Source: Chloroflexota bacterium
GTDB taxonomy: Bacteria; Chloroflexota; Dehalococcoidia; Dehalococcoidales; UBA3254
Assembly (NCBI GenBank): GCA_017860765.1
Contig: JAGDMY010000003.1
Span: 1-18,612, forward strand
Direction of reading: 5' to 3'
Length of the DNA: 18,612 nucleotides
This document shows positions 1,529-18,107 of this stretch, piece by piece (position 1 is the stretch's first letter; each line of letters starts with the position of its first letter). The position numbers were made by a program, and so were the translations under genes. Below the pieces are notes generated by a model. The model made no database searches. It was not told where the DNA came from and saw only the letters and a list, made by a program, of their open reading frames with translations.

Positions 1529-1621
1529 TTCCCCTCCTTTTTTAGTCCCCTGTAAATACCGCATTACCGCTGCCTTCGCAGCAGTTTTCCACATTATCTG
1601 AGCCGTGATCAAGCCGGCACT

Positions 1622-4183: not shown

Positions 4184-5404
4184 TCAACGCTGACTGCCGC
4201 GAAAAAAGAATGCCGAAATCAGGGTCACTGCCAGCATTGAGATGCCGGCGATATTGAAACAGGCTTGAAAGCCCCATTTATCTATTATCTGGCCCATGGT
4301 GGGAGCAAATATGGCCCCGGTCCCACCCATAGTAAAATAGTATATTCCATAGATGGTTGAACGATTGCGTAGTGAAGTCTGTTCAATGATAAAAGCCTCA
4401 GCTACGGGCAAGCAGAGGGTACTGCTGATGCCCAGGAATAATAGCAGTATTATATACTGGGGTCCCCAGGCGGTATAACTCAACAGGACAACCAGACCAC
4501 CCCGGACTAAAAAACTTATTATTATCACCGGGGCCCGGCCTAACCTGTCTGAGATATAGCCTCCGATAGGACCAGACCACAGCCCTGTCGACCATATAAT
4601 AGAAAGAAGTGAGGCTGACAGCTGCTCGCTAAGCCCGAACTGGTCCACCGCGTAGAGCGGTAAAAATGAGGTTACGGACCAGGCGGCTCCTCCTGCCAAA
4701 GTGTTGAGTGCTAACATGGCAGCTATCCGGCGTTTATAACCGGGCGCCGGCGGCGCCTCCTCAAGATAGCCTCTTTCAGCCTTACTCTGACTCATCGAGG
4801 ATCGCCTGCTGAGAAAAAGGACAAAGATAACACCAAAGATAGCAGTGGGAATTGCCAGTCCGATAAATGAAGCGTGCCAGCCCCAGGCACCTGCAATGGC
4901 GCCCGCAATTAGAGGTGCCAGGAAAAAGCTGGCGTTTCCACCGATAAGATGAATACCCAGTGCCCTTCCACGCTGTTGCGGTTCGACAGAGGAGGCAATC
5001 AGGGGGGTGGCTGCCGGGTGATAGCCGCCCGCCAGCAAACCCATTATTATTAAGAAGACCAGCATCAGGGTGTAGTTCTGTGAAATTCCCACCAAAAGAC
5101 CGGCGATAGCTACGCCCAGGATTCCTAAAGTGATCAGGATGCGCGGTCCCACCCGGTCGGCCAACCAGCCTCCGGGAAGCTGACTGAAGGCATTAGCCAA
5201 AGAAAAAGCGGAAGTTACAAAGGCTGATTGGGTATAGCTCAAATTGAATTGATCGCGAATAAAAGGCAGCAGCGGTATCGGTATCGCGGTAAGAAGGTGA
5301 TGAAAACAGTGAGCTACGACAAACAGAGGCAACGTTGTTAAGAAAAACGAACGGCCCTTCAATTGTGGATTACCACCCTGGCTGGCTGGTTCCGCTATGC
5401 TCAT
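4184..5404 (-). CDS. Major facilitator superfamily transporter (12 membrane segments)
   Basis: This 406-residue protein has about twelve hydrophobic segments and a hydrophilic central loop at residues 200-226. The MFS motif A is visible in both halves: GGWLADRVGPR at 78-88 and GGYISDRLGR at 281-290. GGYHPAATPL at 126-135 and the RGRALGIHLIGGN segment resemble the fosmidomycin-resistance/NarK-like and sugar-acid porter groups. Its place between redox enzymes and a decarboxylase-like enzyme suggests uptake of the pathway substrate or export of a product. The ATG at 5404 lies 30 bp after the preceding stop and has no clear ribosome binding site, so the start is less certain than the body. Confidence 0.88.
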   Translation of the reverse strand: MSIAEPASQGGNPQLKGRSFFLTTLPLFVVAHCFHHLLTAIPIPLLPFIRDQFNLSYTQSAFVTSAFSLANAFSQLPGGWLADRVGPRILITLGILGVAIAGLLVGISQNYTLMLVFLIIMGLLAGGYHPAATPLIASSVEPQQRGRALGIHLIGGNASFFLAPLIAGAIAGAWGWHASFIGLAIPTAIFGVIFVLFLSRRSSMSQSKAERGYLEEAPPAPGYKRRIAAMLALNTLAGGAAWSVTSFLPLYAVDQFGLSEQLSASLLSIIWSTGLWSGPIGGYISDRLGRAPVIIISFLVRGGLVVLLSYTAWGPQYIILLLFLGISSTLCLPVAEAFIIEQTSLRNRSTIYGIYYFTMGGTGAIFAPTMGQIIDKWGFQACFNIAGISMLAVTLISAFFFRGSQR

Positions 5405-5434: not shown

Positions 5435-7111
5435 CTAAACCTCCCCAGCAGTATTTTTTGGCTCCAGCGTTACGTAGTAGGTGTCCCCAGTGTGGTTGGG
5501 GTTAAGAAACTCTCTGATTTTCCACTGGTATTCAAATACTAATGGCTGGGGGAAAGCTGCGGCCTTTTTCTCATGCTCTTCTTTAGTCAAACCATAGCCA
5601 TCATCCCGCCTGGAGATAGCATACATTCTCTCCATCGCACCCAGGCCATGCTCCCGGCCAAATTTGGATGATAGTTCAAAGTATTCATGGGTTTCCGTCA
5701 CCGAGCGCCTATCATGGGAATCAAAATGGGTGAAGTTCTCCCAGGCGGTCACCCCTCCCCCGCCGATTCCCGCCATACCTCCCATCATGGTGTCCCCACC
5801 CGCCGCCACGAAGGAGTCATGCTCCTTTTCCCACTTGCGCTTGAATTCCGCGGCCAATTCAACTCTCGGACATGAATAGTCCGGACATCCCCCTATCCCG
5901 AAAGCCCCTTCATAACCCCCGGCAAAGACGAAATTCAGGTTTTTATGTCCCAACCTCAGCAGGAACAGCAGGCTCCAGTCCTTGATATCCGGGTCTTCCA
6001 TTAAGGAGGCTTTCCATCCACCGGTCTCGGCTAATATTTTATCCAGCACTTTTTCCTGCCAGTCGATATCCCTGGGCGTCATGCCTGCCAGTATAAGCTG
6101 GAAATCACGTTTCATCTCCTCATTTTGCCTCAGAGTTTCGGGATCCTTCAGCAGCCATTCGAGATCATTGAGGGTCTTGTTCGGGTCAGCCAGTATCTTA
6201 ATCATAGCGGCCTTCAGGTCCCGGCCGAACATAGTGTACTGGCGGTGAGAATAATAACCGCTAATACCGCTATCCCAGATCCGGTAAAGGCCGTTGGCAT
6301 AGGCTTCCCAGGAAGGCCAGGCTACCGTATGCCCGACAATATTGGGCGGCAGCACGGATTTATATGCCGGGATAATCCCTTCACTGGGAAAGTCGGGAGG
6401 CCCGGGCCAGGGGAACAGTTTGATGGCGCATTTGGTAAAGACACCCATGGCTCCCATGGCTCCCGAACCGCCCATGATCAAGCCCCGCAGGCCCGGCCCC
6501 GGCCCGTCATCGCAGAACCAACCCAGTCCGGAACCCAATGATCCGGAACGCAGAATTTCACCGTCCGGCATGACCCATTCAAAGGCCAGCAGGTTCTCAC
6601 GGGTCAGACCGCCAAACATGGCGAAAGGTGAAGGCCCGCCGTTGCAGCAGGCGCTGGCCAGGGGTGAACAACTGGAGCCGGCGCCGATAATGGTGGTGTT
6701 GAGTCCCAACTTCATGGCTTCAGCCTGAAGAGTAGCGCCGATGACGTAAGGCTCGATTACCGCATACTGGTTCTTCTCGTTGATTTCCAGGATACGGTCC
6801 ATGCGTTTCATATCCAGCGTGATGGCCTTATCATCGCAAATGTTGGCCCGTGAGGTCCAGAACGTGCTGGCGGCGTGGAATTTGATTTGATACTTATTAC
6901 ACAGTTTGACCACTGACTGCACTTCCTCCGTGCTTCCCGGCAGAACGGCGGCCAGGCCTCTGGGGGTGAATACGTTGTAGACCGGCCCCATATGGTGCTG
7001 GGACTGGGCCATTGAGGTGGCGTAGCTATCCAGGACTGCGGGATCATCCGAGATATTGTCCGGCCCGACTATATCTTCAAATTGCTGGTAGACTTCCCTC
7101 GCTAATGCCAT
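5435..7111 (-). CDS. FAD-binding oxidoreductase (GlcD / VAO-type, large)
   Basis: This 558-residue protein has an N-terminal FAD_binding_4-type domain. The region around residues 51-75 holds the entry element (RGLAAVLPGSTEEVQSVVKL). YAVIEPYV (116-123) and MGVFTKCAIKLFPWPG (222-237) correspond to the VAO-fold segments that line the FAD. The substrate domain is unusually long and rich in glycine and aromatic residues, and a Cys cluster GSSCSPLASACCNGG lies at 145-159. The usual C-terminal FDPxGxxNPGK motif is absent. The family oxidises 2-hydroxy acids or phenolic side chains. AAGGAG precedes an ATG at 7111. A GTG one codon upstream is the other possible start. The Fe-S protein gene ends 14 bp upstream, so the two are probably co-translated partners passing electrons from flavin to iron-sulfur clusters. 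Confidence 0.85.
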   Translation of the reverse strand: MALAREVYQQFEDIVGPDNISDDPAVLDSYATSMAQSQHHMGPVYNVFTPRGLAAVLPGSTEEVQSVVKLCNKYQIKFHAASTFWTSRANICDDKAITLDMKRMDRILEINEKNQYAVIEPYVIGATLQAEAMKLGLNTTIIGAGSSCSPLASACCNGGPSPFAMFGGLTRENLLAFEWVMPDGEILRSGSLGSGLGWFCDDGPGPGLRGLIMGGSGAMGAMGVFTKCAIKLFPWPGPPDFPSEGIIPAYKSVLPPNIVGHTVAWPSWEAYANGLYRIWDSGISGYYSHRQYTMFGRDLKAAMIKILADPNKTLNDLEWLLKDPETLRQNEEMKRDFQLILAGMTPRDIDWQEKVLDKILAETGGWKASLMEDPDIKDWSLLFLLRLGHKNLNFVFAGGYEGAFGIGGCPDYSCPRVELAAEFKRKWEKEHDSFVAAGGDTMMGGMAGIGGGGVTAWENFTHFDSHDRRSVTETHEYFELSSKFGREHGLGAMERMYAISRRDDGYGLTKEEHEKKAAAFPQPLVFEYQWKIREFLNPNHTGDTYYVTLEPKNTAGEV

Positions 7112-7125
7112 CACTACTACTCCTT

Positions 7126-8400
7126 CTAAATTGCTTGTTGTACCAATTCGATAATGTCCAGGACCTTCATCTTCTGCCCGGTAGCTTTTATGGAATCCAG
7201 GAAATTATGCTCGCACCAGGCACAGGCGGTTACGATGGCCTCCGCCCCGGTGGCGGCCGCCTCTGTAATCCTTTCCCCGGCAGTCCAGGCCGAAAATTCG
7301 GGGTAAGCGTCGCTGCAGCCCCCACCCGCCCCGCAGCACCAGGAATACTCCCGTATCCTTTCCATCTCCACCAGCTGCAAACCTGGAATGCTCTTCAGCA
7401 CTTCTCTGGGCGGATCATACATCCCTCCGGCCCCATTATACCTGGGTTTCGGCGGATCATAGATTACCACCTGATTCAGGATTTTCCTTTCCTTGCCGCT
7501 CCAGGGTAGATACGGTTCCCCCTGCCTCCCCAGATGGCAGGGGTCATGATAGGTCACCTTCATCGGAATGTCTTTCCGCGGTTGTACTTCACCCCGCTGG
7601 ATCAAGCGGTTGATGAGCTCCACGGTATGCAGCACCTCAATATTGGAGCCAAGTTGAGGATAGAGACGCTTGAAAGCAAAATAGCAGTCCGCACAGGAAG
7701 TGACGATAGCTTTAATCCCTGCGGTCTTCCAGAGCTGGATATTATTTTCCGCAAATTTTACGAATTCTCCCCGGTAGCCCATCTGGTAAGCGCGGCTGCC
7801 ACAGCAGCTTTCATTTTTCCCCATAATGCCGATATCAAGGCCGGCTTTCCTGAATAAGCTGATGGCTGCCCGCGGTACCTTTTGCAATTCCTCATCATAA
7901 CTGAACCGGCAGCCCGCAAAAAAAACGAATTCGGCTTTCTCCTGGGTAATATCCTTAACATCCAGTCCATCGGCCCACCGGCCACGCTTGTCCCGGACCA
8001 TCCCCAGCATCATCGTGTCCTCTTTCCGGAGGTTGTCGATGAAGGGCATGTGCTGAGGCAAGAGCTGACCGTCGGTTACGGCCCTGGCTTTTAACTCCAG
8101 CAGGTTTTCCAGCGGCTCCAAATTGTAGCGACAGACTTTATCGGTTACCGAGCAATTACCGCAGGCCAGGTCTTTGTAGATGATATCCAGCACTCTATCG
8201 GTATATTCGATCTTTCCATCCAGAAGTGATCGGGCGACTGAGTAGCGCCCGCGTGCCGAGTAGGCATTGAAATTGCTGTAAGCTATGCTGGGGCAGCCTT
8301 TGGCGAAGCGCCAGCTTTTTATTTTGTCCTGGGGAATCCACTTGCAATAGGAACACAGGCTGCATCTTTCCTGGTCGGGTCGATAGTCTTCCAGGGCCAT
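7126..8400 (-). CDS. Iron-sulfur protein with two CCG domains (GlcF / HdrD-like)
   Basis: This 424-residue protein has an N-terminal ferredoxin-like part with Cys13, 16, 19 and 36 and then Cys80, 83 and 90. It is followed by two cysteine-rich CCG domains: Cys164, Cys199-Cys200-Gly and Cys236-x2-Cys239 in the first, and Cys288, Cys355-Cys356-Gly and Cys393-x2-Cys396 in the second. CCG pairs bind noncubane [4Fe-4S] or similar clusters in heterodisulfide reductase HdrB/HdrD and act in electron transfer in GlcF and LutA/E-type proteins. The second ferredoxin motif shows only three Cys, so one N-terminal cluster may be altered. There are no membrane segments. AAAGGAG precedes the ATG at 8400. It sits between two FAD oxidoreductase genes and is presumably the shared electron acceptor. 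Confidence 0.9.
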   Translation of the reverse strand: MALEDYRPDQERCSLCSYCKWIPQDKIKSWRFAKGCPSIAYSNFNAYSARGRYSVARSLLDGKIEYTDRVLDIIYKDLACGNCSVTDKVCRYNLEPLENLLELKARAVTDGQLLPQHMPFIDNLRKEDTMMLGMVRDKRGRWADGLDVKDITQEKAEFVFFAGCRFSYDEELQKVPRAAISLFRKAGLDIGIMGKNESCCGSRAYQMGYRGEFVKFAENNIQLWKTAGIKAIVTSCADCYFAFKRLYPQLGSNIEVLHTVELINRLIQRGEVQPRKDIPMKVTYHDPCHLGRQGEPYLPWSGKERKILNQVVIYDPPKPRYNGAGGMYDPPREVLKSIPGLQLVEMERIREYSWCCGAGGGCSDAYPEFSAWTAGERITEAAATGAEAIVTACAWCEHNFLDSIKATGQKMKVLDIIELVQQAI

Positions 8401-8418
8401 TTTCTCACTCCTTTTGTT

Positions 8419-9888
8419 CTAAAAACACAACTTCCCCGGATTCATTATTCCCCTGGGGTCGAACACTTTTTTAATATTCCTCAGCAAGGCGGCGGATTGC
8501 CGGTCCCGACTGAAGGCCATATTGGACCAGATTCCGTATGGCCGTGAAAAGAACGCCCCCTGATTCAGCAGGGTATCGCTGGCCCGGGCATATAGTCCCC
8601 GGATATGGGACACTTCCTCGGCACTCTCGGGGTCGTAGGGCAGATTGAACTCGCAATGGCAGTTAACTCCCTGGTGCCGCGGCTGTATGTATACACCCAT
8701 GTCTGAGACCGGGTAGCCGTTGGTCTGTGACACCGAGGACATGCCCCTGACCATTTCAGGAGTCCTGTCCAGGGTGGTGATAAAAAAGACCTCCTGACAG
8801 CCGCCCTTGTAGGCCAGTTTCCAGTAGGGCTCCCCTGAAGGCCTGGTGATAATCTCCAGGGCCTGGTCACCTGTGGCTCCCGAAACCTCCGATCTGAGCT
8901 CCAGACCGAACTGGCCGGCGATCTCCCGGATATCCTTTTCCTGGAACTCCACCCTTTCGGCGGGCAACTCTTCCCGTCCCGCGATTCCCACCACAACCAC
9001 CCAGGGCGGAAGAGCGTCCTTTAAGGATTTCACCTGAACGGGGCTCTCTCCCAGAGCATAGGCCAGATTAATATTGTTCATCAGAAAAAGCTCGTCAGCA
9101 TAGCGGAACTTTAAAATCCGGTAAGTGAAATCCAACAAATCGTTCAGACCGTCAGAAGGAACAAAGAAAAGCCGGTGTAGCTGGGGCAAGACCTCGCATT
9201 TTACCGACGCCCAGGTCGCAATGCCTATACTACCCTGAGCAGCAGTCAGGAACCTGTAGAAATCAGTTTGCGCGGGACCAGCCGGGTCTACCTGCCTTTT
9301 TTCCTGGTCCCACTGCTCTTCCAGGTCCATGACGTCATATCCGGCCGTTCCGGACCACAGCTTGTTTCCGTCGCCCCAGATTATCTCCAGACAGCGCAAA
9401 GGGTCGAGTGATGACCACTGGTAGCGGCAATTCAATCTGGGCTCTCTTTCCAGAAGGCTGGCTATTACTGATTTGTTGGCCCGGGGAAGCAATGACGTCG
9501 AGAGCCGCATTCCTTTCTCGGCCAGGGCCGGTTGGAGTTCACCATAGGTCACCCCCGGCTCTATGACAGCCATGCGGTTGCGGCGGTTGATATCGAAAAT
9601 TTTCTTCATGCCGCTCAGGTCTAAAATCACCGCCCCGGGTACGGACGGCACCGTATCGCCGTGAAAATGGGGCGGACCGGAGCTAACCGGAACCAGCGGG
9701 GTATCGGTCTGATTGGCCCACCTGACTACCTTTTGAACTTCATCCACGTTCCCGGGTCTCACCACCAGGCGAGGTTTTAAGGCCCGGGTGAAACTGTGGT
9801 CCCGGGAATACTCCTCCAGTATTTCGGGACTGTCTAAAACATTTTCAGGGTTGACCAGTGGTATTAGCCCGGTTTTCGGATCGCTCAT
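8419..9888 (-). CDS. FAD-binding oxidoreductase (GlcD-like) with atypical FAD-binding loop
   Basis: This 489-residue protein shows the FAD_binding_4 entry strand and helix (LVVRPGNVDEVQKVVRWAN, 41-59), AVIEPGVTYGELQPAL (107-121), GSIGIATWASVKC and, at the C-terminus, VFDPRGIMNPGKLCF, the standard ending of FAD-linked oxidase C-domains. The pyrophosphate loop, normally Gly-rich, reads SGPPHFHGD (70-78), and the usual GG-containing segment after the first FAD domain is replaced by a charged stretch. FAD may be bound differently, or this may be a structural second subunit as GlcE is to GlcD. I chose the ATG at 9888 because it follows a purine-rich AAAGGGGG site and leaves 25 bp after the HEAT gene. 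A longer frame to 9972 would overlap that gene. The Fe-S protein gene follows 18 bp later. Confidence 0.83.
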   Translation of the reverse strand: MSDPKTGLIPLVNPENVLDSPEILEEYSRDHSFTRALKPRLVVRPGNVDEVQKVVRWANQTDTPLVPVSSGPPHFHGDTVPSVPGAVILDLSGMKKIFDINRRNRMAVIEPGVTYGELQPALAEKGMRLSTSLLPRANKSVIASLLEREPRLNCRYQWSSLDPLRCLEIIWGDGNKLWSGTAGYDVMDLEEQWDQEKRQVDPAGPAQTDFYRFLTAAQGSIGIATWASVKCEVLPQLHRLFFVPSDGLNDLLDFTYRILKFRYADELFLMNNINLAYALGESPVQVKSLKDALPPWVVVVGIAGREELPAERVEFQEKDIREIAGQFGLELRSEVSGATGDQALEIITRPSGEPYWKLAYKGGCQEVFFITTLDRTPEMVRGMSSVSQTNGYPVSDMGVYIQPRHQGVNCHCEFNLPYDPESAEEVSHIRGLYARASDTLLNQGAFFSRPYGIWSNMAFSRDRQSAALLRNIKKVFDPRGIMNPGKLCF

Positions 9889-9913: not shown

Positions 9914-10666
9914 TTAAGACCGCAGTTTTGCAAGGGCGACAGCAGCCATTTCACGCAGGGTTTTATTTTCATTCACCAGGACTTCTTCAAGTTGTGATAC
10001 AGCCTGACTGTCGCCCAGATACCCTAAAGAGGAAGCCGCTATTATGCGGACCGTTTGGCTATCATCATTTAAAGCTTCTATTAATCGTGGCACTGCTTGC
10101 TTATTGGCAATCAAGCCCAGCGATGAAGCTGCAATCGCCCGCAAACATTCGTCATCGTCCCCCATCAGGTCGATTAAAGGAAGGACCGCTTTTTCGATGC
10201 GCATTTCACCGAGCGCCAGAGCGGCATTTCGTTTGACCTGCTTATCAGGATTTTTCAGTGCCCGGAGCAAGGCCGGAACGGCTTTCGGGCCGCCGATAGC
10301 TCCCAGCACCTTAATGGTGACGGCATGCACCTCTAGCTTGCCCCTGTCCTCGAGAATCCCTTCAAGATAGGGAATGGCTTGCTCGCATTTTAGGTCGCCC
10401 AGAGCTAAAATAACGGCCCGGGATACCAGAAGGCTATCCTCCTGCAGCGCCTTGATAAGCTGCGGTACAACTTGTTCAGAGGGAATTCTACCCAAGGCGA
10501 TAGCCGCGCACGCTCTCAACCACTCGGGTTCGTTCCTGGCCTCCAGTATCCGGATCAAATAGCCGGCGCCATTGGGGTCCCCTGTTTTACCCAGGGCGAT
10601 GATACCGGCTGCCCTGACTATCAGATCGCTGCTATTCAAATCATCCAGGTAACTGCTCAGGTCCAT
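9914..10666 (-). CDS. HEAT-repeat (PBS-lyase-type) protein
   Basis: The 250-residue protein consists almost wholly of about eight 31-residue HEAT-like repeats. Each has a VRxxAAxALGxLG-type first helix and a xAVPxLIxAL-type second helix, for example VKRNAALALGEM, LRAIAASSLGLI and VRIIAASSLGYL. There is no catalytic motif, signal peptide or membrane segment. Such proteins act as scaffolds, binding partners or chaperone-like factors, and PBS-lyase-type repeats are also known in phycobilin lyases and archaeal/bacterial redox operons. A GAGGAAGG stretch lies just before the ATG. It sits between the regulator and the FAD/Fe-S/FAD genes with short spacing (38 bp and 25 bp), which suggests a role in assembling or holding that complex. 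That is inference. Confidence 0.88.
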   Translation of the reverse strand: MDLSSYLDDLNSSDLIVRAAGIIALGKTGDPNGAGYLIRILEARNEPEWLRACAAIALGRIPSEQVVPQLIKALQEDSLLVSRAVILALGDLKCEQAIPYLEGILEDRGKLEVHAVTIKVLGAIGGPKAVPALLRALKNPDKQVKRNAALALGEMRIEKAVLPLIDLMGDDDECLRAIAASSLGLIANKQAVPRLIEALNDDSQTVRIIAASSLGYLGDSQAVSQLEEVLVNENKTLREMAAVALAKLRS

Positions 10667-10704: not shown

Positions 10705-11454
10705 TTAATGCAGTAAATTATTCGAAATACGCCTGGCGCTGGCGATAATTTCTGGCAAAAGCTCGGCCGTCCGGGGTTCGAGCCGGGACTGAACCCCTAA
10801 AACCGTTAAAGCTGCGGGAAGATGGTAACCTTGAATTGCGGCTGAAATTGCCACTGCCCCGGCAATTCTTTCCCCCCTGCTCATAGCATAGCCCTGCTTC
10901 CTTATCTGATTTAATTGTGTGATAATAGCCGTTTTTCCCGGTGCGGAATTCCCGGTCGTATTCTCCGCCATAAGATAATTAATAACCGAGGCCAATTCCC
11001 TGCGGTCGAGTTGTGATAGCAGCGCTTTTATCGCCGCTCCCTGGAAATTCAGGCTGGTTAAATCATAATTTTCGTCATAAACTCGGATGTCATGGACGCT
11101 GGGTATCATGTGCAGGCGGACATTGCGAATTCCGATCAGAACATCTAAAACCACGGTCTCCCCGCAGATTTTTGACAGGTGATTCATTTCACCGACCGAT
11201 AGGGTAATTAAATTAAGGTGAGTCGTTTTGGGATTTGCCACAAGGCGATTTAAAAGATATCCCAGGAAATATTGGCGATGAAGGGGGTCTCGAATCGCCA
11301 GATTCGATTGTTCCAGGGCTGAGAGCAGTCTACTCACTGTTGATTTGCTTAGTTCACAATACCGGGCAATCTCGGTCACGGAATTCCTCCCGTCACTCAG
11401 ACAGGAAAGAATTTTAGCGGCGCGGGAAATTGACTTATAGGCTGTGCTTGTCAC
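10705..11454 (-). CDS. IclR-family transcriptional regulator
   Basis: Starting at GTG 11454 the protein has 249 residues, the family's usual length. The N-terminal winged helix-turn-helix is clear (YKSISRAAKIL, then SVTEIARYCELSKSTVSRLLSALE), followed by the IclR effector-binding domain with GETVVLDVL, IRNVRLHMIPS, a GYAMSRGER element and VAISAAIQG near the end. The GYAxxxGER and AISAA(I/V) elements are typical. An in-frame TTG at 11487 would add 11 residues but would leave a leader of only about 18 nt. GTG was preferred because it begins just ahead of the conserved helix, although its ribosome binding site is weak (AAGAAG). IclR regulators usually bind a small aromatic or organic acid. It heads the unit with the HEAT, redox, transporter and decarboxylase-like genes and probably controls it, itself, and perhaps the upstream unit. 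Confidence 0.9.
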   Translation of the reverse strand: MTSTAYKSISRAAKILSCLSDGRNSVTEIARYCELSKSTVSRLLSALEQSNLAIRDPLHRQYFLGYLLNRLVANPKTTHLNLITLSVGEMNHLSKICGETVVLDVLIGIRNVRLHMIPSVHDIRVYDENYDLTSLNFQGAAIKALLSQLDRRELASVINYLMAENTTGNSAPGKTAIITQLNQIRKQGYAMSRGERIAGAVAISAAIQGYHLPAALTVLGVQSRLEPRTAELLPEIIASARRISNNLLH

Positions 11455-11470
11455 GTTATTGGCTTCTTTT

Positions 11471-11513
11471 TTCAATTTATGCAACAAATATTTTCAATTT
11501 TGCAATAATTGAA
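11471..11513. promoter_or_regulatory. Putative IclR operator: palindrome plus repeated half-site
   Basis: An inverted repeat with 7-bp arms TTCAATT (11493-11499) and AATTGAA (11507-11513) flanks the 7-bp centre TTGCAAT. A related half-site TTCAATTTATGCAA starts at 11471, exactly 22 bp (about two helical turns) from the first. The palindrome covers the predicted start of the IclR transcript, a position suited to autorepression. Confidence 0.6.
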
Positions 11514-11635: not shown

Positions 11636-13981
11636 TCAGGCCTGCTTTATAGCCTGCAACACCCTCTCGGGCGTCATCGGCAAATGGAAGACCCGCACTC
11701 CTGTGGCGTTGAAGATCGCGTTGGCGATTGCCGGAGCGGTCGGGTTCATCGCGGCTTCGCCCATCCCCTTGGCTCCGTAGGGTCCTTCTTGATGGGGGTC
11801 CTCGATTATGAAGGTGGCCTGTTTATTTCCGCTGGGCACATCCGCCGCAGTGGGAATTTTATAATCATGAAAATTCGGATTGAGCATAACGCCCTTATCG
11901 CTGAAAACGAAGCCTTCAAAAAGGGCCGAACCGATGCCCATCCCCATCCCACCATCGATCTGCCCTTCGACCAGCTTGGGATTAATGGGGCACCCGCTGT
12001 CGAAAGCAGAAGCAAACCTGAGGACCTTCACCACACCTGTCTCAACATCAACCGCTACTTCAACTGCCTGAGCGCCGTAGCAATAGCTGACTGTTAGTTT
12101 GCTCCCCTGACCTGTCTCATAATCTTCGGGGCTGGGATGGCCCCAGAAGCTGCCTTTGCCGATGATTTCAGCTCCTTCCGGCAAGCATCGGGCCCTTTTC
12201 AGCTGTCCGCGGGCTTCCGGCTGGGCTCCTAAAAAGAGGTCGCCGATAGGAATGGACTGCGAAGGTTGATCCTTGATATAGATCCTGCCTCTGGCGGTCC
12301 GCAGGTTTTCCGGCCTGGCTGCCAATCGCGGGGCCGCCAATTCAAAAAGTTGGCGCTTGGCGTCATCGCAGGCCTTAAGGATGGCATTGCCAACGTAGAG
12401 GGTGCTGCGGCTTGAGGCCGCCCCGTAATCATAGGGGCTGATGAAAGAGTCGCCCCAAAACATTTTGACCTGGTCCAGCGGGATTTGAAATGATTCACCG
12501 ACCATCTGCGTGAAGATTGTGTTGCACCCCTGGCCGCACTCGTCAGTGCCGTGGTAGACCTCCACTTTTCCGTTATAACGCACCTTGACGATGGCCGACG
12601 ATGCGGTGTCGGAGATGGTGTATTTACTACCCAGGGCGACTCCTCTGCCAATTTTTATATGCGGTCCCGATCCTCGATCCGGGGGTTGGGAATTCAGCCA
12701 GGCTACCGCCTTCTTCAAGGCCTCCTTGGCCCCGATACTGTGAACTACTTCGCCTCTGACGTTAATTTCTCCCTCGTCCGGAGTATTTTTGAGACGATAT
12801 TCCGCCGGACTGATCCCCATCCGGCAGGCCGTAATGTCCATTTGCTGTTCAGTGGCCCAGAGGATCTCGGCACTGCCAAAACCGCGCAGAGGACCACAGG
12901 CCGGTTCATTGGTGTATACACCATAGGCATCCCACCTGTAATTGGGCAGGCGGTACTGGGAGGCGTGAAAAGATCCATTGCGGATGGTCATCGGGGCCAG
13001 GTTCGTGTAACCGCCGGTGTTGACGATGACTTTGATCTCCCGGGCCAGAAGGATGCCGTCCCGGGTTACGCCGTCTTTGATATAGGTGACAGTCGGCAGG
13101 CGGTTCAGGCCGTCCAGAAAACATTCTTCGCGGGAGTAGACCATCTTCACGGGTTTGCCGGTCTTCAGGGCTATCAGCAGCGCAAACCTCTCCGGCCTGG
13201 CTACTATACCAAACATACCTCCCACGTAGGTCGCTCTCATCCTGAGCTTATCGGCTGGCAGATGAAAAGCCTCCGCCGTCGGCCAGAGGTTCTCGTAAAC
13301 CCGGCCGGAGGTCCACATGGTGAACGTGCCATCCGGTTCGGGGTAGCAAACACAATTGTAGGGTTCCAACTGACAGTGGGTCATACGGTCATTCTGAAAT
13401 CGATTCTCAACAATTAAAAAGGCCTCTTTGAAGGCTTCTTCAGTATCGCCTTTACGCACTTTATGGTGGGTATGGACATTCGGACCGGGAAGGTCTTGGC
13501 CCAGGTATTCATAAAAGGCCCTTTGATAATGAGCTAAATCCGGATGAAGTACTACAGGACAGTCTGGCTTCATGGCTTCTTCAACATCAAAGATGGCCGG
13601 CAATTCTTCGTATTTGACATCTATTAGATCAACGGCTTCCTCTGCCGCTTCGAGCGTATCGGCGGCGACCAGGGCAACCGCATCTCCGGCGAACCGCACT
13701 CTTTCCCGGCACAACACATGACGGTCGTTGAGAAGTATGCCTGTCCTGAATTCCGGGGCGTCCCCACCGGTATAGACGGCTTTCACCCCCGGGACTCTCT
13801 GAGCCCGTGAAGTATCGATACTCCGAATTAAAGCATGGGCCAGCGGGCTGCCCAACATTTTGGCGTAAAGCATCCCGGGATACCGCAGGCCTTCATCGGC
13901 GGTAAACCTGGCCGAACCCGTTGCTTTAGCCCGGGCATCCACCCTGGGGAGGCTTTGCCCGATGTAATTAAATTCATTCAC
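11636..13981 (-). CDS. Molybdenum hydroxylase, molybdopterin-binding large subunit (xanthine dehydrogenase / CoxL family)
   Basis: This 781-residue protein matches the undivided molybdopterin subunit of xanthine dehydrogenase, CO dehydrogenase and 4-hydroxybenzoyl-CoA reductase (about 770-800 residues). It has the N-terminal a/b-hammerhead domain (VDARAKATGSARFTAD), GGMFG at 254-258, RGFG at 366-369, ECGQG in the second half and GAKGMGE with Glu742, the conserved active-site base. These enzymes hydroxylate heteroaromatic rings with water, or reductively remove phenolic OH from aryl-CoA. The start is GTG, overlaps the end of the 2Fe-2S subunit gene by 8 bp and has AGAGGA upstream, so translation is coupled. 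The Mo ligand (Se, S or O) cannot be told, and the substrate is unknown. Confidence 0.93.
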   Translation of the reverse strand: MNEFNYIGQSLPRVDARAKATGSARFTADEGLRYPGMLYAKMLGSPLAHALIRSIDTSRAQRVPGVKAVYTGGDAPEFRTGILLNDRHVLCRERVRFAGDAVALVAADTLEAAEEAVDLIDVKYEELPAIFDVEEAMKPDCPVVLHPDLAHYQRAFYEYLGQDLPGPNVHTHHKVRKGDTEEAFKEAFLIVENRFQNDRMTHCQLEPYNCVCYPEPDGTFTMWTSGRVYENLWPTAEAFHLPADKLRMRATYVGGMFGIVARPERFALLIALKTGKPVKMVYSREECFLDGLNRLPTVTYIKDGVTRDGILLAREIKVIVNTGGYTNLAPMTIRNGSFHASQYRLPNYRWDAYGVYTNEPACGPLRGFGSAEILWATEQQMDITACRMGISPAEYRLKNTPDEGEINVRGEVVHSIGAKEALKKAVAWLNSQPPDRGSGPHIKIGRGVALGSKYTISDTASSAIVKVRYNGKVEVYHGTDECGQGCNTIFTQMVGESFQIPLDQVKMFWGDSFISPYDYGAASSRSTLYVGNAILKACDDAKRQLFELAAPRLAARPENLRTARGRIYIKDQPSQSIPIGDLFLGAQPEARGQLKRARCLPEGAEIIGKGSFWGHPSPEDYETGQGSKLTVSYCYGAQAVEVAVDVETGVVKVLRFASAFDSGCPINPKLVEGQIDGGMGMGIGSALFEGFVFSDKGVMLNPNFHDYKIPTAADVPSGNKQATFIIEDPHQEGPYGAKGMGEAAMNPTAPAIANAIFNATGVRVFHLPMTPERVLQAIKQA

Positions 13982-14462
13982 GGTCTTTATCCTCTGCCAT
14001 CCTGTCTGCGGCAGCCATCACCGCTTCAATAATTTTCACGTACCCCGTGCAGCGGCACAGGTTGCCGCTCAACCACCTTTTGACTTCATCCTCGGTTGGC
14101 CTCGGATTCACATCCAGGAGAGCTTTAGCGGCCAGTATCATGCCGGGGGTACAGTACCCGCATTGCGAAGCAAAATGGTCGATGAAGGCCTGTTGAATCG
14201 GATGCAGCCTGCCGTCCCCCTTTTGGAGCCCTTCAATCGTGGTAATCGCCTTTCCTCTTGCTTTCATAGCCAGCATGAGGCAGCTTTTTACTGCTTTACC
14301 ATCGACCAGGACAGTGCAGGTGCCGCAGTCTCCTTCTTCGCAGCCAGCCTTAACCCCGATGAGCCCCAATTCCTGCCGCAGCACCCGGGCCAGATTCCAC
14401 CAGGGTTCAATATGGACCCTTTCCTTCTCGCCATTCACTTCCAGCACAATCGCCTGTTTCAT
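13974..14462 (-). CDS. Molybdenum hydroxylase, [2Fe-2S] small subunit (CoxS / HcrC type)
   Basis: The 162-residue protein carries both expected clusters. A plant-type [2Fe-2S] site uses Cys41, 46, 49 and 61 (GCEEGDCGTC pattern), and the helical-domain cluster uses Cys101, 104, 136 and 138 (QCGYCTPG and CRCTGY). All eight ligands are present. The protein passes electrons from the Mo site to FAD in the large complex. It lies between the FAD subunit gene (30 bp upstream) and the large-subunit gene (8-bp overlap). A TAGGAG site lies just before the ATG at 14462. Length and motifs are fully typical. Confidence 0.95.
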   Translation of the reverse strand: MKQAIVLEVNGEKERVHIEPWWNLARVLRQELGLIGVKAGCEEGDCGTCTVLVDGKAVKSCLMLAMKARGKAITTIEGLQKGDGRLHPIQQAFIDHFASQCGYCTPGMILAAKALLDVNPRPTEDEVKRWLSGNLCRCTGYVKIIEAVMAAADRMAEDKDRE

Positions 14463-14492
14463 AGGTCTCCTAAGATCAAAATAACCTTCCTG

Positions 14493-15344
14493 TCAAGTTA
14501 TTAAAGTCTTCAGGGCCCTCCGGGTAAAGACCTCCACCATCTCCTGGCGATATCCGGACGAGCCGCGGACGTCAGTAATGCAGCGCGATTCTCCGGCGGC
14601 AATCGCGGCAACTCTCTTTATCAGGGATTCAGTGAGGACCTGCCCCCGAATTGCATCCTCAGCCTGACGGGCTCTCAATGGCGTGGGGGCCACTGCTCCC
14701 AGGGCAAGGCGTATATCTTTTACAGTCCTGCCCTCCATAACCGCGGCGACGGCCACCCCCACTACTGCCAGGTCCATGGCACCGCGGGGGCTGTGTTTAA
14801 TATAAACTGCCCTGGTGTCAGGTTGAGGAGGAGGCAGCGCTATTTCGACCAGAATCTCACCTTTTTCCAGGCAAGTCAGGCCCGGGCCCAGGAAAAAGCA
14901 CTCTAAAGGTATGATTCTCTCGCTTTCCCGCGCCCTGGTCCTGGCACTGGCCTGCAAACAAATCAGGGCGGGGACTGTATCCGCTGAGGGTGCCGCGTTG
15001 CAAACATTGCCTCCCAGAGTGGCTAAATTTCTAATGGCTATCGAGCCGATCTGGCCGGCAGCATAAGAGAGGACCGGGTAATATTTCTTTAGAAGGGGGG
15101 AGTATTCAAGGGCGCTGATTTTGGTTAGAGCGCCGATCGTTAGGCCGCTTTTCGGTGAATATTTTATCGAGTCGAGATTGGGAATCCCCTCCAGATCAAT
15201 AACGTAGTCCGGGTTGAGAATCTTGCGCTTCATCTTCACTATGAGGTCGGTACCCCCGGCCACCAGCGAGGCTTGATTCCCATACTTTTCGAGGAAAGCA
15301 GATGCCTGTTTGAGAGTTCTGGGCTCCAGATATTGGAAATGCAT
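14493..15344 (-). CDS. Molybdenum hydroxylase, FAD-binding medium subunit (CoxM / XdhB type)
   Basis: The 283-residue protein has the two FAD motifs of the family: VAGGTDLIV at 28-36 and TLGGNVCNAAPSAD at 109-122. It also has GSIAIRNLATLGGN context and the C-terminal CO-dehydrogenase flavoprotein domain (LALGAVAPTPLRA). It takes electrons from the 2Fe-2S subunit and passes them to NAD+, ferredoxin or another carrier. The extra [4Fe-4S] insertion found in the HcrB subunit of 4-hydroxybenzoyl-CoA reductase (324 residues) is missing, so this is unlikely to be a true dehydroxylating HCR. The order FAD, 2Fe-2S, Mo subunit is the common CoxMSL order. A run of G precedes the ATG at 15344. Confidence 0.93.
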   Translation of the reverse strand: MHFQYLEPRTLKQASAFLEKYGNQASLVAGGTDLIVKMKRKILNPDYVIDLEGIPNLDSIKYSPKSGLTIGALTKISALEYSPLLKKYYPVLSYAAGQIGSIAIRNLATLGGNVCNAAPSADTVPALICLQASARTRARESERIIPLECFFLGPGLTCLEKGEILVEIALPPPQPDTRAVYIKHSPRGAMDLAVVGVAVAAVMEGRTVKDIRLALGAVAPTPLRARQAEDAIRGQVLTESLIKRVAAIAAGESRCITDVRGSSGYRQEMVEVFTRRALKTLIT

Positions 15345-15394
15345 GATTCCCCCCGACCGGTCACCCCAACCATTTAATGATAAGTGTGTTCATC

Positions 15395-15417
15395 GTCCGG
15401 ATAAGGGCCCTCCGGAC
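15395..15417. other. Perfect hairpin between the hydratase and Mo-hydroxylase genes
   Basis: GTCCGGA (15395-15401) and TCCGGAC (15411-15417) form a 7-bp GC-rich stem with a 9-nt loop inside the 100-bp gap. No T-run follows on the minus strand, so it is not a classical terminator. It may be an RNA stabiliser, a processing site or a protein-binding palindrome. Confidence 0.5.
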
Positions 15418-15444
15418 TTCTTTCATCAGTAGATAAAAGGGATG

Positions 15445-15954
15445 TCATCCGTCTTTCCCGGGCCTGTCCGCTAACTTCCTCTGGGCATATTCGATGAGGC
15501 CACCTGCGGCTATCAGTTCTCTGATGAAGTCCGGGTAAGAAGCTGCCTGGAATATACTGTTCTTGGTGAGGTCCTTGATTTCACCTGAAGATAGATCAAT
15601 TTGAAGGGTATCCCCGCTTTCAATATTTTCTGCCGCTTCAGGGCACTCCAATAAAGGCAGCCCGATATTTATGGCATTCCGGAAGAAAATTCTGGCAAAT
15701 GTTTTAGCGATCACGCAGGAAATCCCTGCGCCTTTGATTGCCAGAGGGGCAAATTCCCTGGAGGACCCGCAGCCAAAGTTGTCGGTGGCCACGATTATAT
15801 CTCCTCTCTGCACCCTCCCGGGGAAATCAGGGTCTATGTTTTCCATACAATGCCTGGCTAAATCTGATGCTTCCGATAAACCGGAGTAACGACCGGCAAT
15901 GATGGCGTCAGTGTCAATATTGGCGCCGAATTTATGGGCCCTGCCCTGGATCAT
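15445..15954 (-). CDS. Aconitase-family small subunit (LeuD / DmdB-type hydro-lyase)
   Basis: This 169-residue swivelling-domain protein has the [12 protein letters not shown] entry motif near residues 12-23 and the conserved [13 protein letters not shown] loop, which contributes the substrate-binding and catalytic Ser-Arg, plus [22 protein letters not shown]. It pairs with the large subunit to hydrate or isomerise a branched unsaturated diacid. Length equals the archaeal-type IPMI small subunit (about 165). The loop after RY, which reads YL-type in 3-isopropylmalate and homoaconitate enzymes and sets substrate choice, here reads [11 protein letters not shown], so a non-leucine substrate is plausible. 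The ATG overlaps the large-subunit stop by 4 bp and a GAGGAGG site lies within the end of the large-subunit gene, so translation is coupled. Confidence 0.9.
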
Positions 15955-17210
15955 TTCTTTGCCACCTCCTCTGGACCGGTGATTCTGCCGGTGATCGCAG
16001 TGGCGGCAGCTACGGCCGGGTTGGCCAGATAGACTTCAGATTGCGGGCTTCCCATTCTACCTATAAAATTACGGTTGGTGGTGGAAAGGCAGCGTTCGCC
16101 GGCGGCCAAAACGCCCAAACAGGCCCCCGGACAGGGGCCGCACACCGGTGGACCGACCAGCGCACCCGCTCTGAGAAACAGTTCAATCAAACCCTCTGAC
16201 AAAGCCTCGAGATATATTTTCTGGGTAGCCGGGATGATAAGGCAGCGCACCCTGGGGTGTACCCTTCTCCCTTTTAATATTTGACCGGCTACCCGCAAGT
16301 CTTCGAGGTGACCGTTGGTGCAACTGCCAATAAAAACCTGGTCAACCTCGATATTGCCGAAGCGGGAGACCGGCCCGCTATTCGCCGGAGAGTGGGGAGC
16401 AGACACTTGAGGTTCAAGACTTGAGACATCGTACTCAATTATCCTGGCGTATTCGGCGTCATTATCCGTGGTATAAACCGCATAGGGGCGCGGAGGGAAT
16501 TGATTGATAAAATCCCGGGTTTTTCTATCCACGTTCATGATGCCGGTCTTGGCTCCGGCTTCCACCGCCATGTTGGCCATGGTAAATCGGCTGCTCATGG
16601 AGAGAGAGTCGATGCCCTCTCCGCAGAACTCCATGGCCGAGTATAATGCCCCATCTACACCCATATCGCCTATGGTATAAAGTATCAGGTCCTTCCCGCT
16701 TACCCATCTGGATAGCTTGCCGCGATAGGCTATTTTAATTGTCGGCGGGACTTTCAGCCAGATTTCCCCGGTGGCCATAGCGTAGGCGATATCAGTCGAC
16801 CCCATTCCCGTAGATAGAGTGCCTAAAGCTCCGCCGGTACAGGTATGTGAATCCGCCCCCACGACAATATCACCGGGGAATATTAGACCTTTCTCCGGCA
16901 TCAGGACATGCGCAATACCCCCCTGGCCCAACTCAAAGTAGCGGGTCCCCTGCTCGCAGGCGAACTCCCGCAGTTGCCTGGCCTGCTCTGCCGAAGCCAG
17001 GTCCTTGTTGGGCACAAAATGGTCCGGTATCAGCACTATTTTAGAGGGATCAAAAACCTTGTCCACACCGATGCGCCGGAACTGTTTAATGGCCAACGGC
17101 CCGGTGCAATCGGTAGCCATCACCAGGTCCACCTTGACGCTTACAAACTCCCCCGGGCTGACCTTTTTTTTGTCACAATGGGCCTGAATTATTTTCTCGA
17201 CTATGGTCAA
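15951..17210 (-). CDS. Aconitase-family large subunit (LeuC / DmdA-type hydro-lyase)
   Basis: The 419-residue protein matches the archaeal-type isopropylmalate isomerase/homoaconitase/dimethylmaleate hydratase large subunit (about 420). The three [4Fe-4S] ligands are Cys297 (GSCTNGH), Cys357 and Cys360 (CGPCPGACLG). GADSHTCTGGALG (118-130) and PDHFVPNKD (62-70) are also conserved. The start is TTG with AAGGGG upstream. It lies 24 bp after the lyase gene and overlaps the small-subunit gene. No other leucine genes (LeuA, LeuB) are present. Next to an isocitrate-lyase-type enzyme the pair looks like 2,3-dimethylmaleate hydratase DmdAB of nicotinate fermentation, but methylaconitate-type or citraconate substrates cannot be excluded. 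Confidence 0.9.
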   Translation of the reverse strand: MTIVEKIIQAHCDKKKVSPGEFVSVKVDLVMATDCTGPLAIKQFRRIGVDKVFDPSKIVLIPDHFVPNKDLASAEQARQLREFACEQGTRYFELGQGGIAHVLMPEKGLIFPGDIVVGADSHTCTGGALGTLSTGMGSTDIAYAMATGEIWLKVPPTIKIAYRGKLSRWVSGKDLILYTIGDMGVDGALYSAMEFCGEGIDSLSMSSRFTMANMAVEAGAKTGIMNVDRKTRDFINQFPPRPYAVYTTDNDAEYARIIEYDVSSLEPQVSAPHSPANSGPVSRFGNIEVDQVFIGSCTNGHLEDLRVAGQILKGRRVHPRVRCLIIPATQKIYLEALSEGLIELFLRAGALVGPPVCGPCPGACLGVLAAGERCLSTTNRNFIGRMGSPQSEVYLANPAVAAATAITGRITGPEEVAKK

Positions 17211-17234
17211 TCTGCTTACCCCTTAAAGATCCGC

Positions 17235-18107
17235 CTATTTATATTTTTCTTCCATAGCCCTGATTTGGGGCACACCGATAATCTCATTAAATTCTGACCA
17301 GGTGGTCAAATCGTTCATATATCCCTGCGGCGAATTGGTCTTCTTCAAGATTTCCAGCGCCCGGGAAACAGCCCTGGTAGCTACTAAGAGGGTAGTCAGG
17401 GGGAAACAAACGAATTTAAAACCAATTTCCTGAGCTTGTTGGGCATCAATTAAAGGAGTCCTTCCACCCTCAATTAAATTTAGCATTAAAGGTTTTTTGA
17501 CCTCTTTGACGGCCCGTTTCATCTGGTCGACGGTCTCGTAGGCTTCAATAAAAACAAAGTCCACCCCGGCTTCAGCATATAAATTGCCCCGCCTGAGGGC
17601 CTCTGCGAACCCATCGGTGGCAATGGCATCGGTGCGAGCGCCAACCACGAAATCCGGATCATATTCATTCCTGGAATCTATGGCGGCCTTAATCTTGCCG
17701 ACCATTTCATCAGCCGGGATGATGCGCTTGCCGGCCATATGGCCACACCTCTTGGGCCAGACCTGGTCTTCAATGAATAGTCCGGCGGCGCCCCCGCCGA
17801 TGTACTCTTTGACTGTCCGGTAGACATTGATCGGATTCCCGTACCCGGTATCGGCATCGGTCATAAGAGGAATATTCACAGCCCGGGCGATTGAGGTTAC
17901 CCTGTCACACATTTCTTTGAAAGAGACCAGCCCGACGTCTGGCATGCCAAGCAGGCTGGCAGCAGTGCCATACCCCGTATGAGTAATAATATCGAAACCG
18001 GCCCTCTCTGCCAGGACGGCCGTCAGGGCATCATAAACGCCGGGCATAAAGACCGTTCCCGGCTCATTTAACATCTTCCTGTACAGGGCTGACATTTTGG
18101 TACGCAT
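17235..18107 (-). CDS. Isocitrate lyase/PEP mutase-family lyase (2,3-dimethylmalate lyase or 2-methylisocitrate lyase type)
   Basis: With the ATG at 18107, preceded by AGGAG, the protein has 290 residues, the size of PrpB and of Eubacterium 2,3-dimethylmalate lyase (289-296). The frame stays open to 18254, but the extra N-terminal residues are unlike the family and overlap the preceding gene. Key motifs are HTGYGTAAS, DADTGYG (84-90, metal-binding Asp residues), KRCGH (119-123, catalytic Cys121 found in lyases but not in PEP mutase), ARTDA (157-161) and FIEAYE with Glu188. The reaction is probably a retro-aldol cleavage to pyruvate plus a carboxylic acid. The adjacent hydratase pair favours dimethylmalate lyase (propionate plus pyruvate). 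Methylisocitrate lyase would need citrate-synthase-like partners that are not seen here. Confidence 0.88.
   Translation of the reverse strand: MRTKMSALYRKMLNEPGTVFMPGVYDALTAVLAERAGFDIITHTGYGTAASLLGMPDVGLVSFKEMCDRVTSIARAVNIPLMTDADTGYGNPINVYRTVKEYIGGGAAGLFIEDQVWPKRCGHMAGKRIIPADEMVGKIKAAIDSRNEYDPDFVVGARTDAIATDGFAEALRRGNLYAEAGVDFVFIEAYETVDQMKRAVKEVKKPLMLNLIEGGRTPLIDAQQAQEIGFKFVCFPLTTLLVATRAVSRALEILKKTNSPQGYMNDLTTWSEFNEIIGVPQIRAMEEKYK

What the first reader, a model, noticed from the sequence alone, without database searches (positions are those of the whole stretch)
11636..18107. Lyase, aconitase-type hydratase and molybdenum hydroxylase in one unit: a possible heteroaromatic or branched-diacid pathway
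Six genes run in one direction from one putative promoter: a PrpB/dimethylmalate-lyase-type enzyme with KRCGH, a LeuCD/DmdAB-type pair and a complete CoxMSL-type hydroxylase. In Eubacterium barkeri nicotinate fermentation a Mo hydroxylase acts first, and dimethylmaleate hydratase and dimethylmalate lyase act last. The middle enzymes (enamidase, methyleneglutarate mutase, methylitaconate isomerase) are not visible. The unit may be a variant nicotinate route or a new pathway that ends in pyruvate plus propionate or another acid.
Basis: partly seen in the sequence, partly recalled or inferred. Interest (0 to 1): 0.72.

Follow-up and report, generated by a model that had tools for sequence, protein, structure and literature searches.

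The report
Branched-diacid breakdown operon with molybdenum hydroxylase
An uncultured bacterium carries, side by side, genes resembling the last two steps of a rare oxygen-free breakdown of a ring-shaped vitamin and a molybdenum enzyme of an uncharacterised branch, which suggests a related but unknown pathway.

Summary
The six genes are real and lie at the stated coordinates. They fall with relatives that sit beside a 3-methylitaconate-isomerase-like gene in two Deltaproteobacteria (isomerase-LeuC-LeuD-lyase, L001, L002), not with PrpB or leucine-operon LeuCD. Clade support is 100/99 (lyase) and 100/98 (LeuC+LeuD). The LeuD recognition loop has Ser/Ala where 19 of 21 homologues beside leuA/leuB-like genes have Leu. 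The genome of L002 also carries a nicotinate dehydrogenase-enamidase-reductase-like cluster. The nicotinate reading of the window itself is not supported: its molybdenum hydroxylase lies outside the nicotinate dehydrogenase clade, and no enamidase, reductase, mutase or isomerase was found in the window. My reading: hydratase and lyase turn a dialkylmaleate (2,3-dimethylmaleate or a near homologue) into pyruvate plus a short acid, and the hydroxylase acts upstream on another, probably cyclic, substrate. Seven same-strand genes directly downstream (IclR to an arylmalonate-decarboxylase-like protein) probably belong to the same island, and a truncated hydantoinase/lactamase-family gene lies at the window edge. 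The hydroxylase's substrate and the middle steps stay open.

The parts
17235..18107 (-). PEP mutase/isocitrate lyase superfamily C-C lyase, dimethylmalate-lyase/petal-death-protein-like
   Evidence: tree; ATG at 18107 chosen from alignment A1
15951..17210 (-). LeuC/DmdA-type [4Fe-4S] hydratase large subunit (GSCTNG and CGPC cysteines present)
   Evidence: trees
15445..15954 (-). LeuD/DmdB-type small subunit; recognition loop GRYSGLSEA instead of the common ARYLNxS
14493..15344 (-). CoxM-type FAD subunit of molybdenum hydroxylase
13974..14462 (-). CoxS-type [2Fe-2S] subunit
11636..13981 (-). CoxL-type molybdopterin subunit; GAKGMGE (catalytic Glu) and CGPLRGFG read in the translation, no CODH AYRCSFR motif seen there (motif meanings recalled)
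10705..11487 (-). IclR-family regulator
9914..10666 (-). HEAT/PBS-lyase repeat protein
8419..9888 (-). fad1, FAD_binding_4 oxidoreductase (probable start 9888; mechanical ORF starts 9972)
7126..8400 (-). feS, cysteine-rich (CCG) Fe-S protein, TfrB/GlpC-like
5435..7114 (-). fad2, FAD_binding_4 oxidoreductase, VAO/p-cresol methylhydroxylase/glycolate oxidase superfamily
4184..5404 (-). MFS transporter
3463..4167 (-). Arylmalonate decarboxylase/maleate isomerase superfamily, single-Cys (decarboxylase-like) pattern

Best explanation
The unit is a catabolic operon of an uncultured, probably anaerobic bacterium. The LeuCD-type pair adds water to a small cis-dicarboxylate with alkyl groups on the double bond, most likely 2,3-dimethylmaleate or a near homologue such as 2-ethyl-3-methylmaleate or citraconate. 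The PEP-mutase-superfamily lyase then splits the resulting 2,3-dialkylmalate into pyruvate (or another 2-oxo acid) and a short-chain acid such as propionate, without CoA or ATP. The CoxMSL enzyme is a hydroxylase using water-derived oxygen that acts earlier on a different, probably cyclic or N-heterocyclic, substrate. Its product reaches the dialkylmaleate through steps encoded elsewhere. Shown here by sequence: family, clade membership, loop change, linkage of close relatives to a 3-methylitaconate-isomerase-like gene. Inferred: the substrates, the order of steps, and the link between hydroxylase and cleavage enzymes (adjacency only).
For: Close relatives of the three lower-pathway genes form one block with a PrpF-family protein in two Deltaproteobacteria: LeuC 64/65%, LeuD 71/68%, lyase 70/66%. 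In L001 that protein scores 344.8 bits against 3-methylitaconate isomerase (3g7k) and 217.0 against the best PrpF chain. Lyase tree of 38 rows: window, L001, L002 and L009 form a 100/99 clade; PrpB (1mum) sits with CPEP mutase in another branch. LeuC+LeuD tree: the window with four copies in catabolic-looking contexts (two isomerase-linked, two TRAP-transporter-linked) at 100/98. This holds with the loop columns removed (100/98), and grouping the window with five Chloroflexota-side leucine-operon rows is rejected (p-AU 0.009). The LeuD loop, reported to set substrate preference in isopropylmalate isomerases (PMC7308503, abstract and passages), has Ser in the window and Ala in L001, L002, L161. 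In rows beside leuA/leuB-like genes it has Leu in 19 of 21. Homoaconitase 2pkp has YLRT; the window has no Arg there, which argues against a third carboxylate. The best PDB matches of the lyase are petal death protein (242 bits) and dimethylmalate lyase (196), ahead of CPEP mutase (187) and PrpB (181). Genome G002, which holds L002, also holds an NDH-enamidase-Hnr-like cluster.
Against: LeuC alone does not resolve the window (polytomy), and Chloroflexota-side leucine-operon LeuC is nearly as similar (59-64%). The two TRAP-linked members of the clade have no lyase or Mii within the 20 kb fetched. A lyase beside a Mii/PrpF-like gene in G355 (L205/L223: lyase 44%, isomerase 48%) groups on the PrpB/CPEP side (94/90), so such linkage is not exclusive to the window's clade. 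NCBIfam's best model for the L001 isomerase is 4-oxalomesaconate tautomerase (325.5 bits, below its cut-off 440), above prpF (250.7). Archaeal lyase-linked LeuD (L005, L007, L008) keeps Leu in the loop, and isopropylmalate dehydratase small subunit 1v7l has Y-N-L, so the loop rule is not universal. L009, the lyase's closest genome relative, sits by acyl-CoA dehydrogenase-like genes, not LeuCD. No Mii is in the window. I found no second locus that joins this lyase/LeuCD type to this CoxL type.
Confidence: 0.55

Rival explanations
1. Complete E. barkeri-type nicotinate fermentation, with CoxMSL as nicotinate dehydrogenase and the middle genes elsewhere in the genome.
For: Relative G002 carries an NDH-enamidase-Hnr-like cluster (L075) on one contig and isomerase-LeuCD-lyase genes on another (L002), so scattered genes are possible. 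G467 carries both an enamidase cluster (L239) and a window-clade LeuCD (L160).
Against: Window CoxL scores 211+174 bits against the two halves of NDH 3hrd, while the enamidase-linked CoxL of L075 scores 415+284. In the tree NDH and L075 share a clade of 6 rows (SH-aLRT 100) that excludes the window. Enamidase occurs in 2 of 4 genomes with window-clade LeuCD and in 4 of 20 other genomes of G002's phylum sample, which is no clear association.
Confidence: 0.12
2. Methylcitrate-type ending: LeuCD acts as 2-methylaconitate hydratase and the lyase as 2-methylisocitrate lyase, giving pyruvate and succinate.
For: NCBIfam's best hit for the lyase is prpB (267.3 bits, below its 354.4 cut-off). PrpF-family proteins also serve methylcitrate clusters, such as prpC-acnD-prpF-dml in Variovorax (PMC9804861, one passage seen). 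A lyase beside a Mii/PrpF-like gene in G355 falls on the PrpB side.
Against: The window lyase groups away from PrpB, no prpC or AcnD was recognised in the window, the LeuD loop lacks the Arg of homoaconitase, and the isomerase linked to the closest relatives scores 128 bits higher with 3-methylitaconate isomerase than with PrpF.
Confidence: 0.12
3. Leucine biosynthesis: LeuCD is the isopropylmalate isomerase, and the neighbours are coincidental.
For: LeuC passes TIGR02083 (LEU2, 611.5 vs cut-off 610.65). Chloroflexota-side leucine-operon LeuC is 59-64% identical.
Against: LeuD falls below TIGR02084 (215.5 vs 245.85) and passes only the broader LeuD/DmdB model TIGR02087, the loop differs, p-AU is 0.009 against grouping with five leucine rows, and no leuA/leuB was recognised in the window.
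Confidence: 0.08
4. Citraconate/citramalate use: LeuCD hydrates citraconate and the lyase splits citramalate into pyruvate and acetate; CoxMSL belongs to a neighbouring but separate pathway.
For: The best PDB match of LeuC is an isopropylmalate/citramalate isomerase. Small loop residues fit a small side group. A 100-bp gap separates leuD from coxM.
Against: The linked isomerase in L001 is closest to 3-methylitaconate isomerase; no direct evidence for C5 acids.
Confidence: 0.2

Closest known systems
E. barkeri nicotinate fermentation, last steps (Mii, DmdAB, Dml; pathway recalled, Alhapel et al. 2006 not held)
   Same: Same pair of enzyme types, adjacent; close relatives are joined to a 3-methylitaconate-isomerase-like gene.
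   Different: Mii, mutase, enamidase and reductase not seen in the window; its Mo hydroxylase is of another branch.
2,3-dimethylmalate lyase (3fa3) and petal death protein (1zlp)
   Same: Best PDB matches of the lyase, catalytic KRCGH/KKCGH loop kept.
   Different: Tree places the window in a separate bacterial/archaeal clade.
Isopropylmalate isomerase LeuCD / homoaconitase
   Same: Same family, GSSRE motif and Fe-S cysteines.
   Different: Loop YSGL instead of YLNT/YLVY/YLRT; separate clade with copies in catabolic-looking contexts.
Nicotinate dehydrogenase (3hrd) and 4-hydroxybenzoyl-CoA reductase (1rm6)
   Same: Same xanthine-oxidase superfamily architecture.
   Different: CoxL is unsplit and in another clade; CoxM is 283 aa (that the 4-HBCR beta subunit has an extra Fe-S insert is recalled).

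Membership tests
Dimethylmalate lyase (Dml) | Lyase branch of PEPM/ICL with K-[KR]-C-G-H | tested here: met
Dimethylmalate lyase (Dml) | Phylogenetic separation from PrpB and linkage to Mii/DmdAB in relatives | tested here: met
   linkage not exclusive (L205/L223)
Dimethylmalate lyase (Dml) | Cleaves (2R,3S)-2,3-dimethylmalate | not testable with these tools
   needs enzyme assay
Dimethylmalate lyase (Dml) | Grouping with E. barkeri Dml itself | not tested
   E. barkeri Dml sequence not obtained
Dimethylmaleate hydratase (DmdAB) | Aconitase-type [4Fe-4S] heterodimer outside the leucine-operon clade | tested here: met
   (LeuC alone unresolved)
Dimethylmaleate hydratase (DmdAB) | Grouping with E. 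barkeri DmdAB | not tested
   sequence not obtained
LeuCD isopropylmalate isomerase | Beside leuA/leuB | tested here: not met
   and family scans 3, 4, 69, 86 (window only; the rest of the genome is not held)
LeuCD isopropylmalate isomerase | Leu after the loop Tyr/His (common, not universal: 1v7l has Asn) | tested here: not met
PrpB methylisocitrate lyase | Score above the TIGR02317 cut-off / PrpB clade / prpC nearby | tested here: not met
Nicotinate dehydrogenase (E. barkeri type) | Molybdopterin subunit in the NDH clade | tested here: not met
E. barkeri nicotinate pathway | Enamidase and 6-hydroxynicotinate reductase present | tested here: inconclusive
   not seen in the window; flanking genome not held
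Aerobic CO dehydrogenase | AYxCSFR active-site loop (recalled) | tested here: not met
   CGPLRGFGS read in the CoxL translation; below the TIGR02416 cut-off

The most novel reading that the evidence does not exclude
A new anaerobic ring-degradation pathway that ends in a dialkylmaleate, for example from methylated or ethylated pyrroles, maleimides or pyridines released from tetrapyrroles in sediments. The CoxMSL enzyme hydroxylates the heterocycle to a lactam, an ATP-dependent hydantoinase/lactamase-family enzyme (a truncated gene of that family lies at window 2-1612) opens it, and the DmdAB/Dml-like pair finishes the alkylated maleate to pyruvate plus propionate or butyrate.
Probability: 0.2. 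Interest if true: 0.75.

Novelty: new variant of a known kind. Interest (0 to 1): 0.5.

Why it matters
As far as I recall, dimethylmaleate hydratase and dimethylmalate lyase are known as a pair from one anaerobic pathway. Finding likely relatives in Deltaproteobacteria and in an uncultured lineage, next to an uncharacterised molybdenum hydroxylase, gives a genetic handle on anaerobic breakdown of alkylated heterocycles. It also suggests a residue marker (the LeuD loop), to be used with a tree, for telling catabolic hydratases from leucine enzymes.

Tried and rejected
Searching the window's own genome was not possible. Searches for close CoxL relatives in genomes gave nothing above 49% identity over full-length matches: 8 of 400 genomes of the phylum of G003 (E<=1e-150), 5 of 395 of the phylum of G002 (E<=1e-180), 1 of 2 (E<=1e-180), 6 of 156 of the order of G919 (E<=1e-150), and 6 of 11 handles at E<=0.001 with at most 39% over full-length matches. 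In the rows shown at most two candidates per genome were scored, so these are lower bounds. The contigs of the 60-77% CoxL relatives could not be reached with the tools left. L072 (LeuC 48%, lyase 41%, CoxL 35%, CoxS 53%, CoxM 41%) looked like a second instance, but its lyase groups with PrpB/CPEP, so I do not count it. Enamidase co-occurrence was tested and is not informative. The promoter scan was at chance level; Rfam found nothing at gathering threshold. CO dehydrogenase and 4-HBCR were considered for CoxL and dropped. No structure prediction was run. Literature searches for the pathway terms gave no paper I could use on this gene combination; searches returned 0 papers, the others were seen as listings only, apart from the passages named in the report and passages of PMC8184944, PMC5746545 and PMC10331938 that added nothing used here.
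Full report
Names. The organisms of PDB chains (E. barkeri for 3g7k, 3hrd and 2vun; A. niger for 3fa3; E. coli for 1mum) and the E. barkeri pathway are recalled; the calls give only the molecule names.

Observation. The window holds a same-strand run of six genes at 18107-11636: PEP-mutase-superfamily lyase, LeuC, LeuD, CoxM, CoxS, CoxL, with family assignments confirmed by NCBIfam and Pfam. Overlaps at leuC/leuD (4 bp) and coxS/coxL (8 bp) and short gaps elsewhere suggest co-transcription, with one larger gap (100 bp) between leuD and coxM. The promoter claim is not supported beyond chance (6 sites, 6.3 expected). Seven more genes continue on the same strand: IclR regulator, HEAT-repeat protein, fad1, feS, fad2, MFS transporter and an arylmalonate-decarboxylase-family protein. 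At the far edge, beyond plsY, a truncated Hydantoinase_A-family gene runs off the window (2-1612, - strand; Pfam 248 bits, best NCBIfam model caprolactamase alpha at 302 bits, below its cut-off of 1000).

Lyase. By sequence the best solved relatives are petal death protein (242 bits), 2,3-dimethylmalate lyase (196), CPEP mutase (187) and then PrpB (181). A pattern scan of the species-genome collection gave 44 loci, of which L001-L015 are 56-70% identical. In a tree of 38 rows, window, L001, L002 and L009 form a clade with 100/99 support, and PrpB joins CPEP mutase in another branch. Of 51 loci meant for that tree 19 are not in it: 15 lactic-acid-bacterial rows that I removed and 4 (L017, L021, L026, L032) lost by the ORF filter.

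Linked genes in relatives. In L001 and L002 the order is PrpF-family protein, LeuC, LeuD, lyase, with 64-71% identity to the window for the last three (in L002 the PrpF-family gene is cut by the contig end). The PrpF-family protein of L001 matches 3-methylitaconate isomerase (3g7k) at 344.8 bits, against 217.0 for the best PrpF; NCBIfam, in which no 3-methylitaconate isomerase model appeared among the hits, ranks 4-oxalomesaconate tautomerase first at 325.5 bits, below its cut-off of 440. This is the Mii-DmdA-DmdB-Dml set expected for the last steps of nicotinate fermentation. A lyase (44%) and a Mii/PrpF-like protein (48%) are also neighbours in G355 (L223), but that lyase falls on the PrpB/CPEP side of the tree (L205, 94/90). 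L009, the closest genome relative of the lyase, is beside two acyl-CoA dehydrogenase-like genes instead (read by eye).

Hydratase. LeuC identity alone is undecided: 64-65% to the isomerase-linked copies, 57-64% to the closer copies beside leuA/leuB-like genes, and the LeuC tree of 55 rows leaves the window in a polytomy. LeuC plus LeuD places the window with L001, L002 and two copies inside or beside TRAP-transporter genes (L160, L161) at 100/98, in a tree of 30 rows chosen from those with both subunits at hand. With 14 residues around the recognition loop removed (27 rows) the clade stays at 100/98, and forcing the window with five Chloroflexota-side leucine-operon rows lowers the log-likelihood by 14.8 (p-AU 0.009). 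That group was named after the first tree was seen, so the p-value is indicative.

Loop. The small subunit's recognition region sets substrate preference in isopropylmalate isomerases (PMC7308503: abstract and passages seen). The residue after the loop Tyr/His is Leu in 19 of 21 LeuD rows whose locus also holds a leuA- or leuB-like gene by BLAST and in 16 of 19 rows without a telling neighbour (60 loci less 13 duplicates, plus the window; several rows are close kin, so they are not independent). The two exceptions among the 21 (L096, L097) are distant copies whose neighbours may be isocitrate-dehydrogenase-like. In the window clade the residue is Ser (window), Ala (L001, L002, L161) or shifted Ala-Val (L160). 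Against a simple rule: lyase-linked archaeal LeuD (L005, L007, L008) keep Leu, and solved isopropylmalate dehydratase subunit 1v7l has Y-N-L. Homoaconitase carries YLRT (2pkp), so the missing Arg in the window argues against a substrate with a third carboxylate such as 2-methylaconitate.

Hydroxylase. The CoxL is a full-length xanthine-oxidase-family subunit. Among the 120 relatives listed, those at 62-77% carry, where named, names of MAGs or unclassified bacteria (Chloroflexota, Chloroflexi, Thermodesulfobacteriota, Deltaproteobacteria, Proteobacteria). In G002, which also holds L002, another CoxL sits beside an enamidase (496 bits to 2vun), a 501-aa ferredoxin-type protein that I take for 6-hydroxynicotinate reductase (recalled; NCBIfam sees only the ferredoxin part), a PRK04334-type protein and an aldehyde dehydrogenase (L075). 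That CoxL scores 415+284 bits against the two halves of nicotinate dehydrogenase; the window's scores 211+174. In a tree of 44 rows (quick method, no bootstrap) NDH and the L075 CoxL share a clade of 6 rows with SH-aLRT 100, and the window is elsewhere with P0122, P0125 and others. So the window hydroxylase should not be called nicotinate dehydrogenase.

Genome context tests. Enamidase was found in 7 of 37 genomes (E<=1e-30): 2 of the 4 with window-clade LeuCD (G002, G467; not G001, G466), 4 of 20 other genomes of G002's phylum sample (G417, G420, G422, G430), and 1 of the remaining 13 (G853). G001 is only 1.4 Mb and may be incomplete, so this neither supports nor excludes the nicotinate link. 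Close CoxL relatives were not found in sampled genomes. The fad2 protein is 80% identical to one in G919 and has a relative (84%) named Dehalococcoidales bacterium, so the source may be a Chloroflexota bacterium, though the nearest named lyase is from a Deltaproteobacteria MAG (80%). G919 has no lyase match at E<=1e-40.

Mechanism. Most likely: import by the MFS protein; hydroxylation by CoxMSL, and perhaps oxidation by the fad1-feS-fad2 set, of a ring or side chain; unknown ring-opening steps; then hydration of a dialkylmaleate by LeuCD and cleavage of the dialkylmalate by the lyase to pyruvate and a short acid. The last two steps are supported by clade, loop and linkage; everything before them is inference from adjacency.

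Verdict. The finding stands as an unusual gene combination whose lower half is most likely of the DmdAB/Dml kind and whose upper half is not the nicotinate enzyme. It is a new variant of a known kind, with a moderate chance of being a new pathway.

Noticed in passing
window 2-1612 (- strand, runs off the window): Truncated Hydantoinase_A-family gene (caprolactamase/acetophenone-carboxylase-like, below NCBIfam cut-offs), same strand, separated from the cluster by plsY; a possible lactam-opening enzyme. L229 likewise has a HyuA/HyuB-like pair near a lyase-LeuC-TRAP set.
   Followed up: partly
L075 (G002:C34), L239 (G467:C45), L240 (G422:C12), L241 (G417:C20): A conserved cluster of NDH-like CoxL, enamidase and a DUF1185-like gene (name recalled) in four genomes of G002's phylum; the Hnr-like and PRK04334-type genes are seen in L075, L240 and L241 but not in L239: an E. 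barkeri-type upper nicotinate pathway in that phylum. A paper search for it gave 0.
   Followed up: partly
L242 (G002:C240): A second, diverged CoxL-Hnr-enamidase set (38-45% identical) in the same genome, perhaps for another N-heterocycle.
   Followed up: no
window 5435-9888; L195-L204: FAD/Fe-S/FAD oxidoreductase trio in the same order in all 10 loci fetched around fad2 matches (two with fad1 cut by the contig end), out of 11 and 18 genomes with matches; near an aldehyde dehydrogenase (BLAST) in three and UbiX/UbiD-like genes (read by eye) in four, hinting at aromatic compound metabolism.
   Followed up: partly
window 3463-4167: Arylmalonate-decarboxylase-family protein with Gly at the first and Cys at the second active-site position, the pattern of the decarboxylase and not of two-Cys maleate isomerases (alignment; residue roles recalled).
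   Followed up: partly
L003, L005-L008: Archaeal lyase loci with LeuC (42-51%), LeuD where the contig reaches it (40-46%) and a small protein ending in FPRGSC, several with a sodium-symporter-like gene (read by eye): a different lyase/hydratase pairing, probably another substrate.
   Followed up: no
L001 5041-7737 and L073 9549-12313: DUF2848, carbon-nitrogen hydrolase and PreA-like genes occur as a block beside the isomerase-LeuCD-lyase genes in L001 and beside CoxLMS in L073.
   Followed up: partly
L160 12281-15363: LeuCD pair placed inside a run of TRAP transporter genes in G467, a likely catabolic dicarboxylate hydratase.
   Followed up: no
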